This document shows, piece after piece, positions 57,873-64,000 of a stretch of 64,000 bases of DNA. A program made the position numbers and the translations under genes. The notes beneath the pieces are model-generated. The model saw nothing but the letters and a program-made list of their open reading frames with translations. It had not been told where the DNA came from and did not search any database. The DNA is taken from positions 1,744,501 to 1,808,500 of the forward strand of contig NZ_CP038865.1 of the NCBI RefSeq assembly GCF_004792515.1. The letters are read 5' to 3'. This DNA is from Vagococcus xieshaowenii. Its GTDB lineage: Bacteria > Bacillota > Bacilli > Lactobacillales > Vagococcaceae. The first letter of the stretch is position 1. Each line of letters starts with the position of its first letter.

Positions 57873-60356
57873 TTATTTTGTTTTAACTTTCTCTTTTAAT
57901 GCTTCTTTATCTTTAACCGAAATAGTGATTTCACCTTTACTTGCACCAACGGTTACCTTATCTCCCATCGCAATCTTACCTGCTAAGAGTTCTTCACTCA
58001 AGCGGTCTTCAACCTTTGTTTGTAAGGCACGTTTTAATGGTCGCGCACCGTACTCTGGGTCAAACCCTGCTTCACCAACCAAATCTAAAGCTGTTGCAGT
58101 AAATTTCAATTGAATAGTTTGTTCTGATAATCGTGTCACAAGTGATTGTGACATAATTTTCACAATCTGTCTTAATTCTTTTTTGTTTAACGAACGGAAG
58201 ACAATCGTTTCATCTATACGGTTAATAAATTCTGGTCGGAAAGCTTTTTTCAACTCTTCCATCATACGTCCTGACATGGCTTGATGGTCTTTACTTAAAT
58301 CTGCCGCATTGAATCCAACTGATTTTTCTTCTTTCAAGGCTGTTGCACCAATATTGGACGTCATAATAATAATCGTATTACGGAAATCGACTTTACGACC
58401 TTTCGTATCTGTTAAGTGACCGTCATCTAACACTTGTAGTAAGACATTAAATATATCCGGATGTGCTTTTTCTACTTCGTCAAATAAAATTACTGAATAA
58501 GGTTTTTGACGGATTTTTTCTGTTAATTGACCACCTTCATCATATCCCACATAGCCAGGAGGTGAACCAATCAAACGACTTGTTGAATGTTTCTCCATAA
58601 ATTCTGACATATCGACACGAATTAAAGCATCTTCTGTTCCAAACATAGCATCTGCCAAGGCTTTTGCTAATTCCGTCTTACCTACACCTGTTGGTCCTAA
58701 GAACATGAACGAACCAATTGGACGTTTTGGATCTTTCAAACCACTACGCGCACGTCGAATAGCCTTTGATACAGCAACTACTGCTTCATCTTGTCCTACA
58801 ACACGTTTGTGTAATTCTTGTTCAAGACCTAATAAACGTTCGCTTTCTTTTTTCTCTAGCTGTTGTAACGGAATACCTGTCCATTGAGAAATAACTTCCT
58901 CAATATCTAGCGCTGAAACTGATTTTTGATACTGATTTACCTTATTAGCTTGTTCTTCTTGTAGTTTAGCGATTTTTTCTTCTTGACGCTTTTCTTGTTT
59001 GCGAAGTTTAGAAGCTTCTTCAAAATTTTGCTCTAAAATAGCGCCGTCTTTAGCTTCACGAATACTCGCTAATTTATTGATAGCTTTAACAAGTGGTGTA
59101 ACTTTGGCCGTAGTATTTAAGCGGACTTTTGCAGCACTTTCGTCGATTAAATCAATCGCTTTATCAGGTAACTGACGACCACTAATATAGCGGACCGATA
59201 AATTAACCGCTTCTTCTAACGCTTCGTCTGTAATAGCGACTTGATGATGTTCTTCATACTTAGAACGAATTCCTTTTAATATTTCTAAGGCTTCTTCAGG
59301 CGTTGGCTCATCTACTTGGATTTTTGCAAAACGTCGTTCAAAAGCTGAATCTTTTTCGATATATTTTTGATATTCTTCTAGAGTAGTTGCCCCAATTGTT
59401 TGAATTTCACCACGTGCTAAGGCTGGTTTTAAAATATTAGAGGCATCAATAGCACCTTCTGCTCCACCCGCACCAATTAACGTATGTAATTCATCGATAA
59501 ATAAAATCACATTGCCATCAGCATAAATTTCTGTCACCAATTGCTTCATACGTTCTTCAAATTCACCACGGTATTTTGTTCCTGCCACTACCGCGCCCAT
59601 ATCAAGCATCATCAAACGTTTCATTTGCATATCTTCAGGTACTTCACCATTAATAATCTTTTGGGCAAGTCCTTCAGCAATAGCTGTTTTACCTACACCG
59701 GGTTCCCCTACCAAAACAGGGTTATTTTTCGTACGTCGACTTAAAATTTGGATTAGTCGCTTCACTTCTTTTTCACGACCTAAGACAGGGTCAAGCATCC
59801 CTTCTCTTGCTAGTGCGGTTAAATCACGCGCTAATGCGTCCAATGTTGGCGTTTTAGAATCTAGAGTTTGCTCGCTCATACCACCTGATCGTTTTCCTTT
59901 TAATCCTTTACTTTCCATTGCACCAATCTTTTTTAAAACTGTTTGGCGTGTTTTGGCTAAATCCATGCCAAAATTACGCAATATACGTGAGGCTAATATC
60001 TCTTCATCACGTAAAATCCCTAATAAGATGTGCTCTGTCCCCACTTTAGGCGAACGCAATCTTACCGCTTCATCTTGCGCAAAGGTTATAATTTGGCTTG
60101 TTCTTGGAGAGTATGGTAAATAATCCACAACTTTTCCATATCGACTTGTATTAAAGCCTGTTAATGAGTCAATTTCTCTTTTTACATCTTCTACTTGAAT
60201 GTCATAACTTCTTAATATCGAGCCTGCAACGCCTTCTTGTTCGATTACTAAACCTAGTAATAAATGTTCTGAACCTACGGATTGATGGCGGAAACGTTTG
60301 GCTTCTTCTTGCGCAATCACTAATACTCGGCGCGCTTTTTCTGTCAATTCTAGCAT
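57873..60356 (-). CDS. clpC: ATP-dependent protease ATPase subunit ClpC
   Basis: 827 residues. Two Clp_N repeats (about 1-150), first AAA+ domain with Walker [10 protein letters not shown] (near 205), a UVR-containing middle domain (about 410-470), and a second AAA+ domain with GPTGVGKTE. It unfolds proteins for ClpP. The start at 60356 with AAGGGG upstream gives the [12 protein letters not shown] opening; the longer frame is not used. The adaptor genes mcsA/mcsB, present in Bacillus, are absent. Confidence 0.97.
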
Positions 60357-60360
60357 ACTA

Positions 60361-60831
60361 TTACCCCTTTTCTTCATAACGTAAGCGATCAATGACGGCT
60401 TTGATTATATTACTTCTAATATAGTCTTCCTGTTCATTGTGCTTGCCGATAACTTCATAACTGATGATTGATAACAATAATTGTGTTTCACTTTTCGTTA
60501 ATAAGTTTTGCTGAAAAAGTTGTTCAATCACAGCGTTTGCTTCACTATAAGTTAATCTTTCTTCAATTAAATCACTTATATAGCACAAATAGTCTTCATT
60601 ATGCCCTAATTGTACCCTTTGTATTCGAATATAGCCACCGCCACCACGCTTACTTTCAACCATATAACCTTGTGCCAATGTAAAACGCGTTTTAATGACA
60701 TAATTAATCTGTGAAGGAACACAACTAAACTGTGAAGCCATCTCAACTCGACGAATTTCTACAACTTCTTCTTCTTGCAAAATTGTTTTTAAATACGCTT
60801 CGATCAAATCTGACATATTCTGATTATTCAT
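60361..60831 (-). CDS. ctsR: Class III stress-gene repressor CtsR
   Basis: 156 residues. N-terminal winged HTH (SDLIEAYLKTIL...EMASQFSCVPSQINYVI) and the RGGGGYIRI wing typical of CtsR, then a helical C-terminal domain. It represses clp genes until heat. The start at ATG 60831 has GGTGAG just upstream. clpC begins 4 bp after its stop. Its own operator lies upstream, so the operon is autoregulated. With no McsB, release must occur by intrinsic heat sensing or another route. Confidence 0.96.
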   Translation of the reverse strand: MNNQNMSDLIEAYLKTILQEEEVVEIRRVEMASQFSCVPSQINYVIKTRFTLAQGYMVESKRGGGGYIRIQRVQLGHNEDYLCYISDLIEERLTYSEANAVIEQLFQQNLLTKSETQLLLSIISYEVIGKHNEQEDYIRSNIIKAVIDRLRYEEKG

Positions 60832-60845
60832 TTCTCTCACCAACT

Positions 60846-60876
60846 TTTGACTATATTTGACCTTAAATATATTATA
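60846..60876 (-). promoter_or_regulatory. CtsR operator and -10 element of the ctsR-clpC promoter
   Basis: Reading leftward, the heptad tandem GGTCAAA-TAT-AGTCAAA (60846-60862) matches the CtsR box with one change. A TATAAT -10 (60871-60876) lies immediately upstream. No good -35 was found. Confidence 0.88.
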
Positions 60877-61009: not shown

Positions 61010-61402
61010 ATGAAAAAACAAATCAATGTGGTCGGCGCTATTTTAATGAACGATGGTAAAATACTCTGTGCTCAGCGTAGCGAAAATATGTCGCTTAGCC
61101 TAATGTGGGAATTCCCAGGAGGTAAGATTGAAGAAGGTGAAACGCCGCAAATGGCGTTAAAAAGAGAACTAAACGAAGAATTATTAATCAATGTAGAGGT
61201 ATCTCCAGATATCTTCGAAACAACGACTTACGAATATGATTTTGGTATTGTTACATTAACAACATTTATTTGTCAGTTAATTAACGGAACGCCTCAATTG
61301 ACAGAGCACGCGGCGATTAAGTGGTTGAAACGCAATGAATTAGAAACGTTAAACTGGGCCCCAGCTGATATTCCCGCGGTAAAAAAATTAGCTCTTGATT
61401 AA
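61010..61402 (+). CDS. MutT-like Nudix hydrolase (8-oxo-dGTP diphosphatase type)
   Basis: 130 residues. Nudix box from G38 to I60: GKIEEGE...RELNEELLI, complete except that the last Gly of the box is Leu59. WEFPGGKIE is typical of MutT. It cleaves oxidised or non-canonical nucleoside triphosphates. ATG 61010 lies 10 bp after AAGGA and is preferred to ATG 60992. The helicase/nuclease gene follows 22 bp after the stop and is probably cotranscribed. Confidence 0.9.
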   Translation: MKKQINVVGAILMNDGKILCAQRSENMSLSLMWEFPGGKIEEGETPQMALKRELNEELLINVEVSPDIFETTTYEYDFGIVTLTTFICQLINGTPQLTEHAAIKWLKRNELETLNWAPADIPAVKKLALD

Positions 61403-61424
61403 TCACTTTTAAAGGATGTGTTAT

Positions 61425-64000
61425 ATGGAAATTTTAGAACGCTCGCTAAAAAAGGCTTTTATCGACAAGACAATTCCCGGATCTTCCTATGATCCTGAAG
61501 TCATTATTAATCAACCGGTTAATCATACTTTTCTATTAAATACACTACAAAATGAATTAAACCATTGCGAAGATTTCTTTTTCTCCATTGCTTTTATAAC
61601 AAAAGATGGATTAGATGCTATTAAAGCACAGTTAGCGGATTTAAATAATCAGGGACGACACGGGCGACTATTGACGTCCACTTACCTATCGTTTAACCAA
61701 CCGAAAGTTTTTGAAGATTTACTAAATATTCCTAACTTAGAGGTTAGACTTTCAGATAAAAAAGGGTTTCATGCCAAAGGTTATTTGTTTGATAAGGGAA
61801 CTTCTCATTCATTAATTATCGGCAGTTCTAACTTAACGTTAAGTGCCCTAAAGTTAAACTATGAATGGAATGTTAAGTTAACGTCCTATGAACATGGAGA
61901 AATTATCCACCAAATAAAGCATCATATGGAAGCAGAATGGCAAGCAGCCACACTATTATCACCACAATGGATTGATGCTTACGCTGCTAACTATGTACGG
62001 CCTATCTTTGAACCAAACGAGTTCGTAGAAACTATCACTGAACATCAAACGACTTACATCGCACCTAATAACATGCAACGACAGGCCCTTGAAAATTTAC
62101 AACAACTACGCCAAGAAGGTCATCATAAAGGCTTAATTATTTCGGCAACAGGAACTGGTAAAACATTCTTAGCTGCTTTTGATGTCCTTCATTACAAACC
62201 GAAAAAAATGCTTTTTATCGTCCATAGAGAACAAATTCTTCATAAAGCAAAAGAATCTTTCCAGCGAATTATTGGTGGACCAGATGACGACTATGGTATC
62301 TTTTCAGGTAACTTACGAGAAACAAACGCCACCTATCTCTTTGCAACGATTCAAGCCATTTCAAAACCTGAGAACCAACAACTTTTTTCTGAAGATTACT
62401 TTGATTATATTTTAATTGATGAAGTTCATAGAGCAGGCGCTCAGTCATATTTAACTACCTTAGACTACTTTAAACCTAACTTCTTATTAGGTATGACAGC
62501 TACACCAGAACGAACTGACCATGTAAATATTTTTGAATTATTTGATTACAATATTGCTTATGAAATTCGCCTGCAAGATGCTTTAGAAGAAAACATGCTC
62601 TGCCCTTTCCATTACTTTGGTGTAACCGATTATGAAAAAGATGGCCTAACAATACATGAGAGTGTTGACTTCAACTATTTAATTGCCGATGAACGGGTCG
62701 ATTTTTTATTAGAAAAAATCAAGTATTATGGCTGTAGCAATAACCAACCAAAAGGACTTATCTTCTGTTCTTCTGTTAAAGAATCCGAAGAATTAGCCGT
62801 ATTATTTAATAAACGAAATATTCCTTCAGCCTATCTATCAGGACAACACTCTATAAGCGAACGAGAACGTGTGATAGCTGAATTAGAACAGGGCGACTTA
62901 CACTATATTTTTACCGTTGATATTTTTAATGAGGGCATTGATATCCCTATGATTAACCAGGTCATCATGCTTAGAAACACCCTATCAAACATTATCTTTA
63001 TCCAACAATTAGGACGTGGTCTTCGAAAATATCCCGATAAAGATTATGTAACAATCATCGATTTTATCGGTAATTACCAAAATAATTATTTAATTCCGAT
63101 GGCCTTGTCGGGTGATACGTCATTAAATAAAAACAATTTAAGAAAAGACACTTATGATACCCACTATATTTCAGGTTTATCTGTGATAAACTTCGAACAC
63201 ATTGCGAAAGAACGAATTTTTGAATCGATTGATAAAGTAAAAATCGATAGCCTAGCTATGTTACGCCAACCCTATCAAACACTAAAAAAACGACTAAATC
63301 GGATTCCAACTTTATGGGATTTTCATCAACATAACCTCGTCGATCCCATCGTTATCGCAACAAAAGAAAAAAATTATTACCAATTCTTAAAGAAAATGAA
63401 AGAAGACATTCCTAGACTTTCTGCTCTAGAAGAAACTTACTTAAATTTTGTCTCTGATGAATTACTATTAGGCTTGCGATTAAATGAACTAATTGTCATC
63501 CAAGATATCCTGAAACATCAAACAATGAGTTACACAACCGAAGAACTGATAGAACTTTTTAAAACTAATGAGCTTAATCATGATATAAACACAATAAACG
63601 CTACTTTAAATACTTTATCACTCAATTTTTATACAGGTGGTGACAAAAAACGATTTGAGCCGGCTGCTATTATTGATTTGAACGCTCAAGTAACACCCAC
63701 TTTTAAGCAAGTGATGAACAATCCTTATTTTCTCGCACACTTGAACGATCTTCTTAAAGTAGCCATTGTCAATTATCAGACACGGATTACCACTATTCCT
63801 TTTACGTTGTACCAAAAATATCGTCGACGTGATACTTTACGATTATTAAATTGGGATAAACAAATGGTAAACCAAAACATCGGTGGATATGTCTATAATG
63901 AGACTGATTTTATTATTTTTGTCACACTTGAAAAAGGTGATGACTTCCGAGGCTCGCTCGTTGCTTATGAAGATGGCTTCGTTGATAACCAAACAGTCCA
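61425..64000 (+). CDS. PLD-nuclease / SF2 DEAD-like helicase with probable DUF3427 C-terminus (3' end outside window)
   Basis: At least 858 residues, open to the right edge. N-terminal HKD/PLD nuclease domain (about 30-165): FHAKGYLFDKG with His116, Lys118 and Asp123, then GSSNLTLSAL. SF2 helicase core (about 215-560): Walker A SATGTGKTF (about 240), DEVH box at 332-335, motif III TATPER (358), and motif VI QQLGRGLRK (527). The remaining region, with TLRLLNWDKQMVNQNIGGY, fits DUF3427. AAAGGA precedes ATG 61425. Similar multidomain proteins are suspected restriction, repair or defence factors; the role here is not established. Confidence 0.88.
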   Translation, partial: MEILERSLKKAFIDKTIPGSSYDPEVIINQPVNHTFLLNTLQNELNHCEDFFFSIAFITKDGLDAIKAQLADLNNQGRHGRLLTSTYLSFNQPKVFEDLLNIPNLEVRLSDKKGFHAKGYLFDKGTSHSLIIGSSNLTLSALKLNYEWNVKLTSYEHGEIIHQIKHHMEAEWQAATLLSPQWIDAYAANYVRPIFEPNEFVETITEHQTTYIAPNNMQRQALENLQQLRQEGHHKGLIISATGTGKTFLAAFDVLHYKPKKMLFIVHREQILHKAKESFQRIIGGPDDDYGIFSGNLRETNATYLFATIQAISKPENQQLFSEDYFDYILIDEVHRAGAQSYLTTLDYFKPNFLLGMTATPERTDHVNIFELFDYNIAYEIRLQDALEENMLCPFHYFGVTDYEKDGLTIHESVDFNYLIADERVDFLLEKIKYYGCSNNQPKGLIFCSSVKESEELAVLFNKRNIPSAYLSGQHSISERERVIAELEQGDLHYIFTVDIFNEGIDIPMINQVIMLRNTLSNIIFIQQLGRGLRKYPDKDYVTIIDFIGNYQNNYLIPMALSGDTSLNKNNLRKDTYDTHYISGLSVINFEHIAKERIFESIDKVKIDSLAMLRQPYQTLKKRLNRIPTLWDFHQHNLVDPIVIATKEKNYYQFLKKMKEDIPRLSALEETYLNFVSDELLLGLRLNELIVIQDILKHQTMSYTTEELIELFKTNELNHDINTINATLNTLSLNFYTGGDKKRFEPAAIIDLNAQVTPTFKQVMNNPYFLAHLNDLLKVAIVNYQTRITTIPFTLYQKYRRRDTLRLLNWDKQMVNQNIGGYVYNETDFIIFVTLEKGDDFRGSLVAYEDGFVDNQTV

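What the first reader, a model, noticed from the sequence alone, without database searches (positions are those of the whole stretch)
61010..64000. MutT-type Nudix enzyme coupled to a PLD-nuclease/SF2-helicase/DUF3427 protein
Seen: two genes 22 bp apart with a complete Nudix box, an HKD nuclease motif and a full set of SF2 helicase motifs in one chain. Known: PLD (HKD) nucleases and COG1061-type helicases occur in restriction and repair systems, and MutT enzymes clean the nucleotide pool. Inference: the pair may form a DNA-damage or anti-invader system in which altered nucleotides or nicked DNA are handled jointly. This is the best candidate here for a poorly described system.
Basis: partly seen in the sequence, partly recalled or inferred. 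Interest (0 to 1): 0.7.

Follow-up and report, generated by a model that had tools for sequence, protein, structure and literature searches.

The report
Anti-phage DNA cutter with nucleotide-cleaning partner
The big gene is a relative of SauUSI, the Staphylococcus aureus enzyme that shreds foreign DNA carrying methylated cytosine, and the small gene beside it probably destroys methylated-cytosine building blocks so that they never enter the cell's own DNA and make it a target; the cutter is known, but this steady partnership has not been explained before in the literature I could search.

Summary
In detail: a Nudix gene (61010-61402) lies 22 bp before a PLD-nuclease/SF2-helicase/DUF3427 gene that runs past the window end (complete: 948 aa, to 64271). 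[quoted passage not shown] The Nudix is a constant partner. It occurs in 108 of 125 genomes of the order with the enzyme, in 15 of 220 without; in the rest of the class in 71 of 71, beside the gene in 67. S. aureus and a Bacteroidota plasmid have the pair too. Partner Nudix enzymes carry the Asp of NudG and of a Bacteroides 5-methyl/5-hydroxymethyl-dCTP hydrolase (140/140), not MutT's Asn. Where SauUSI's cytosine-reading Asp became Asn, the Nudix is usually gone (19/21; at least four switches, three with loss), also between two copies in four genomes. Best explanation: the Nudix removes 5-modified dCTP so that the host does not write the enzyme's target into its own DNA. The substrate is inferred, not measured. 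The adjacency was noted before; I found no functional proposal in the papers searched.

The parts
60847..60875 (+). promoter-like site TTGACT-17-TATTAT upstream of the pair (weak)
   Evidence: consensus scan, 10 of 12 matches at L002:10348-10376; fewer sites in the region than in shuffles, so not evidence by itself
61010..61402 (+). Nudix hydrolase, PADLOC PDC-S07; predicted 5-methyl/5-hydroxymethyl-dCTP pyrophosphatase
61425..64000 (+). SauUSI-type type IV restriction enzyme (gene continues to window-equivalent 64271; 948 aa)
61617..61940 (+). PLD nuclease domain (PLDc_2, residues 65-172) with HxK at 61770-61778
62061..63026 (+). SF2 helicase-like ATPase (ResIII 213-363, Helicase_C 431-534); Walker A 62142-62165, DEVH 62418-62429
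63447..64000 (+). DUF3427 = coupler plus SRA-fold modified-base reader (residues 675-947, continues beyond the window); pocket residues Y822, F832, V833, D850, W860 (D850 and W860 just within the window)

Best explanation
A two-gene type IV restriction module. Shown by homology: the large protein is a SauUSI-type enzyme, a PLD-nuclease dimer with a translocating SF2 ATPase and an SRA reader that flips out 5-methyl- or 5-hydroxymethylcytosine and shreds the DNA. Inferred: the Nudix partner hydrolyses 5-methyl-dCTP and 5-hydroxymethyl-dCTP to the monophosphate. Such nucleotides can come from degraded foreign methylated DNA, from phage-encoded kinases or from outside. Without the Nudix they could be built into the chromosome, which would then carry the enzyme's own target. 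The Nudix would be the self-protection half, doing at the nucleotide pool what a methyltransferase does in ordinary restriction-modification. Likelihoods: type IV restriction enzyme 0.95; Nudix functionally dedicated to it 0.85; substrate 5-modified dCTP 0.7; purpose self-protection 0.55.
For: End-to-end match to SauUSI 7clg and PADLOC mREase_IV; catalytic and pocket residues kept. C5-methyltransferases are depleted in genomes with an intact enzyme (28% vs 59%, p 3e-7) but not with a broken one (67%). Nudix co-occurrence 108/125 vs 15/220 and 71/71, in four gene arrangements. S. aureus SauUSI has the same partner; Bacteroidota plasmid too. Third-best solved relative of the Nudix, B. fragilis 3gwy/Q5LBB1, has kcat/Km near 5e6 on 5-Me-dCTP and 5-hydroxymethyl-dCTP. 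Base-reading position is Asp in 140/140 partners, as in NudG and Q5LBB1; Asn in MutT and in 7 of 12 relatives from genomes without the enzyme. Reader Asp/Glu: Nudix adjacent 138/149; reader Asn: 2/21; same contrast between two copies in four genomes; at least four independent switches, three with Nudix loss, none the other way. Records fetched later fit (Fusobacterium Asn without Nudix; Hymenobacter, L. curvatus, L. plantarum and G796 Asp with Nudix). A DCTPP1-like MazG gene joins some clusters.
Against: No substrate has been measured for this Nudix; 38-40% identity does not fix Nudix specificity, and Asp can also read purines (human MTH1, own knowledge). Only four independent reader switches; sign test p 0.25. 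Divergent DUF3427 enzymes (G202, G273, G362, Proteobacteria) keep Asp without a neighbouring Nudix. Asn-type genomes are not richer in C5-methyltransferases (4/14). SauUSI alone is active and tolerated as a clone in E. coli, although that host has NudG.
Confidence: 0.55

Rival explanations
1. The Nudix is a second weapon: it destroys the phage's own 5-hydroxymethyl-dCTP (or 5-methyl-dCTP) pool during infection, while the restriction enzyme destroys modified DNA already made.
For: The characterised relative does not distinguish 5-methyl from 5-hydroxymethyl dCTP; PADLOC lists the Nudix as a defence candidate; the same reader-Nudix coupling would be expected.
Against: Draining the modified pool lowers the number of targets for the enzyme; a stand-alone weapon should occur often without the enzyme, but only 15 of 220 enzyme-less genomes have it and 8 of the 12 aligned from such genomes lack the Asp.
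Confidence: 0.18
2. The Nudix is an ordinary MutT-type housekeeping enzyme (8-oxo-dGTP) that travels in the operon by linkage or shared promoter only.
For: MutT-like models score well (TIGR00586, 92.9 bits against a cut-off of 97.9); the S. aureus protein 5x1x is deposited as mutator MutT.
Confidence: 0.12
3. The Nudix regulates the enzyme directly (protein contact, or control of the ATP/dATP level that drives it) and does not act on modified dCTP.
For: The enzyme uses ATP or dATP; tight operon in most genomes.
Against: Does not explain the coupling between the base-reading residues of the two proteins, the unlinked cases, or the second, dCTP-pyrophosphatase-like partner in some clusters. SauUSI works alone in vitro.
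Confidence: 0.08

Closest known systems
SauUSI (type IV restriction enzyme, S. aureus; PDB 7clg; PMC7913695, PMC3874153)
   Same: Full-length collinear homologue; same domains, HxK, Walker A, DExH, SRA pocket with Asp; in S. aureus also directly preceded by the Nudix.
   Different: About 43-45% identity, so the sequence context of the site may differ; Gly instead of the intercalating Met829; the Nudix has not been treated as part of the SauUSI system in the papers read.
PADLOC PDC-S07 (candidate defence gene)
   Same: The Nudix belongs to this family (E 6e-56).
   Different: PDC-S07 is listed as a single-gene candidate with no function; here it is tied to mREase_IV and to a predicted substrate.
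NudG/Orf135 of E. coli and Q5LBB1 of B. fragilis (5-methyl-dCTP Nudix hydrolases; PMC5158307)
   Same: Same subfamily level of similarity (38-40%), same Asp at the base-reading position.
   Different: nudG lies in a non-defence neighbourhood in E. coli K-12; the context of Q5LBB1 was not examined.
MutT homologues beside SauUSI in Streptococcus (PMC7641849 Fig. 9) and PDC-S07 with type IV RM in S. suis (PMC12813430)
   Same: The same adjacency, noted in one line each.
   Different: Labelled 'DNA repair' or co-localised candidates; no link to cytosine or self-protection is proposed in the passages read.

Membership tests
SauUSI-type type IV restriction enzyme | PLD nuclease - SF2 ATPase - coupler - SRA (DUF3427) in one chain of about 950 aa | tested here: met
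   948 aa, aligned to 7clg over residues 5-946; Pfam domains
SauUSI-type type IV restriction enzyme | catalytic HxK, Walker A, DExH residues | tested here: met
   H116, K118, Walker A Lys, DE of DEVH present and conserved
SauUSI-type type IV restriction enzyme | 5mC pocket (Y831, F841, I842, D858, W868) | tested here: met
   Y822, F832, V833, D850, W860
SauUSI-type type IV restriction enzyme | no cognate methyltransferase; incompatible with host m5C | tested here: met
   no C5-methyltransferase in this genome; depletion across the order
SauUSI-type type IV restriction enzyme | ATP-dependent cleavage of 5mC/5hmC DNA | not testable with these tools
   needs biochemistry
5-methyl-dCTP Nudix hydrolase (NudG/Q5LBB1 type) | Asp at the base-reading position (MutT Asn119) | tested here: met
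   Asp here and in 140/140 partners
5-methyl-dCTP Nudix hydrolase (NudG/Q5LBB1 type) | score over the curated NudG-type model (PRK10546) | tested here: not met
   100.2 bits against a cut-off of 156: not filed as a NudG orthologue, only as working like it
5-methyl-dCTP Nudix hydrolase (NudG/Q5LBB1 type) | hydrolysis of 5-Me-dCTP | not testable with these tools
   needs biochemistry
MutT (8-oxo-dGTP diphosphatase) | Asn119 and score over the curated MutT cut-off | tested here: not met
   Asp; 92.9 bits against 97.9 for TIGR00586 and 87.8 against 148 for PRK10776
RadD/XPB-type DNA-repair helicase | score over the curated repair-helicase models | tested here: not met
   helicase core only, far below the cut-off (RadD 92.6 against 720)

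The most novel reading that the evidence does not exclude
Cytosine-reading SauUSI-type enzymes form a two-gene system with a 5-modified-dCTP hydrolase that acts as a nucleotide-pool antidote: self is protected by keeping the target base out of the dNTP pool, not by marking DNA.
Probability: 0.5. Interest if true: 0.82.

Novelty: new variant of a known kind. Interest (0 to 1): 0.64.

Why it matters
Type IV restriction enzymes have no methyltransferase and are treated as self-sufficient; how a host avoids writing the target into its own genome from salvaged nucleotides has hardly been asked. A pool-cleaning partner would be a different kind of self/non-self safeguard, would explain PADLOC's PDC-S07, and would give a function to the solved MutT 5x1x. 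The Asp/Asn switch predicts from sequence which SauUSI relatives still read cytosine, which can be tested directly and could yield new modified-base-dependent enzymes.

Tried and rejected
Repair-helicase reading: rejected. RNA elements near the pair: none. Promoter scan: no better than shuffles. Relatives in viral contigs: only two distant helicase matches, not followed. The genome-contig scan with the single protein gave six loci, so the survey was done with family models instead. Orphan Nudix genes beside C5-methyltransferases looked at first like a second m5C partnership, but most of these Nudix carry MutT-like Asn and six of them are one resident gene of one genus, so it is not claimed. 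Asn-type enzymes were expected to tolerate C5-methyltransferases more often; they do not (4/14). No structure was predicted, because a full-length solved homologue exists.

Full report
WHAT IS THERE. The window holds a 130-aa Nudix gene (61010-61402) and, 22 bp on, a gene that runs off the window. From the whole genome the second gene is 948 aa and ends at window-equivalent 64271. It carries PLDc_2, ResIII, Helicase_C and DUF3427 domains; the small protein is a Nudix domain. The pair points away from a divergent ctsR-like/clpC-like gene pair and is followed by a terminator-like hairpin (L002:13780-13815) and a convergent amidohydrolase-like gene (these neighbour names are from reading the sequence).

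WHAT THE LARGE PROTEIN IS. The best match among solved structures is 7clg, 953 aa, aligned over residues 5-946, E 9e-236. 7clg is SauUSI: its sequence reproduces the HxK motif at residue 119 and the pocket numbering given in PMC7913695. PADLOC calls our protein mREase_IV at E 8e-243. SauUSI is a type IV restriction enzyme: a PLD-nuclease dimer, a translocating ATPase and an SRA-fold reader of 5-methylcytosine and 5-hydroxymethylcytosine that shreds DNA between sites (PMC7913695; PMC3874153). In our protein the pocket residues are Y822, F832, V833, D850, W860 for Y831, F841, I842, D858, W868; HxK, Walker A and DEVH are intact. It is a member of a known family.

A FUNCTIONAL TRACE IN GENOMES. 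If these enzymes cut m5C DNA, their hosts should avoid cytosine-C5 methyltransferases. In 345 genomes of the order, 28% of those with an intact main-family enzyme have one, against 59% of those without the enzyme (p 3e-7). Among genomes whose enzyme is broken the share is 67%. This genome has none. The genomes are not independent and could not be stratified fully, so the p-value is only a guide.

THE NUDIX IS A CONSTANT PARTNER. In the same genomes the PDC-S07 Nudix model hits 108 of 125 enzyme-bearing genomes and 15 of 220 others (odds ratio 87). Of 132 enzyme hits, 103 have it within 3 kb: 82 upstream on the same strand, 18 convergent, 2 divergent, 1 downstream. Keeping the neighbour through four arrangements argues for function over hitch-hiking. 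In the rest of the class, 71 of 71 genomes whose enzyme scores above 360 bits have the Nudix, in 67 beside the gene; nine genomes with only lower-scoring, mostly ~800-aa paralogues have none at comparable strength. The genome whose Nudix is identical to the solved MutT 5x1x (127/127) has, directly beside it, a gene identical to SauUSI 7clg in the two segments compared (202/202). A plasmid record named S. aureus shows the same neighbours. The pair also occurs on a Hymenobacter plasmid (Bacteroidota), on Lactobacillaceae plasmids and in a Clostridiales contig.

WHAT THE NUDIX PROBABLY DOES. It is 40% identical to the B. fragilis enzyme 3gwy (named there Q5LBB1), whose measured kcat/Km is 4.8e6 on 5-Me-dCTP and 4.4e6 on 5-hydroxymethyl-dCTP (PMC5158307), and 38% to E. 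coli NudG, for which that paper lists 5-methyl-dCTP as a likely physiological substrate. In MutT, Asn119 reads O6 and N7-H of 8-oxoguanine (PMC11460165). At this position NudG, the B. fragilis enzyme and every enzyme-linked Nudix (140/140) have Asp. Of 12 relatives from genomes without the restriction enzyme, 7 have Asn and 1 Glu. In G190 two Nudix genes flank the enzyme: the partner has Asp, the resident one Asn.

THE TWO READING SITES CHANGE TOGETHER. SauUSI D858 is placed to hydrogen-bond the flipped cytosine. Across 170 aligned enzymes (one lower-scoring paralogue, L236, left out), those with Asp/Glu there have an adjacent Nudix in 138 of 149 cases, those with Asn in 2 of 21 (p 1e-15; within one family 11/11 against 1/20). 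In four genomes with two copies (G192, G240, G250, G301) the Asp copy has the Nudix and the Asn copy does not. On a tree built without the SRA domain the switch happened at least four times; in independent pairs the Nudix goes the same way in 3, the other way in 0, unchanged in 1. With four pairs the sign test cannot be significant (p 0.25). Records fetched afterwards fit: Fusobacterium vincentii has Asn and no Nudix within 3 kb; L. curvatus, L. plantarum, Hymenobacter and G796 have Asp with the Nudix. L. fermentum has Asn with the Nudix, but its enzyme gene is broken.

A SECOND POOL ENZYME. In L. plantarum, L. fermentum, G212 and G029 a MazG-like gene lies in the same cluster; the solved relatives of the L. 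plantarum protein include human DCTPP1 and mouse RS21-C6, another fold with 5-methyl-dCTP hydrolase activity (PMC10742078).

MECHANISM. Shown by homology: modified-cytosine-dependent DNA shredding. Inferred: the Nudix hydrolyses 5-methyl- and 5-hydroxymethyl-dCTP. Inferred further: this keeps the enzyme's target base out of the host's own DNA. The main rival role, attack on the phage's modified dCTP pool, would lower the number of targets and fits the scarcity of the Nudix without the enzyme less well.

LIMITS. No substrate has been measured for this Nudix. More divergent DUF3427 enzymes (G202, G273, G362; Proteobacteria) keep Asp without a neighbouring Nudix; a NudG elsewhere in the proteobacterial genomes was not looked for. 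Asn-type genomes do not show more C5 methyltransferases (4/14). What base Asn-type enzymes read is unknown. The class-level count covers enzymes above 360 bits only.

PRIOR WORK. Fig. 9 of PMC7641849 notes MutT homologues beside SauUSI in Streptococcus. PMC12813430 finds PDC-S07 and type IV RM co-localised in 23/23 S. suis cases. PADLOC lists PDC-S07 as a candidate. My searches of the held open-access papers found no functional proposal; subscription papers were not searchable.

Noticed in passing
L250:5377-5697; L253:5009-5320; L038:718-1026; L024:5111-5464: A MazG-like (PF12643) gene related to dCTP pyrophosphatase 1 joins the Nudix-SauUSI cluster in a few Lactobacillales.
   Followed up: partly
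L089-L091, L093-L103, L105, L106, L165, L168, L176, L177, L252: A subgroup of SauUSI-like enzymes has Asn in place of the cytosine-reading Asp and mostly lacks the Nudix; these may read a different modified base.
   Followed up: partly
L071:5312-7176 (G098): A Nudix of the linked type but with Asn at the base-reading position sits directly beside a cytosine-C5 methyltransferase, in a genome without SauUSI.
   Followed up: partly
L196 (G190), G210, G215: Two Nudix genes flank the enzyme: in G190, where both were read, the partner has Asp and a resident genus-wide copy has Asn, as if the module inserted beside a MutT-like gene.
   Followed up: partly
L253:1990-4997 (L. fermentum DR9); G055, G065, G330, G296, G585: SauUSI-like genes interrupted by stops or frameshifts while the neighbouring Nudix is still there.
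   Followed up: no
window 57873-60843, - strand: The pair is transcribed divergently from ctsR-like and clpC-like stress genes, which lie directly next to each other with no other gene between them.
   Followed up: no
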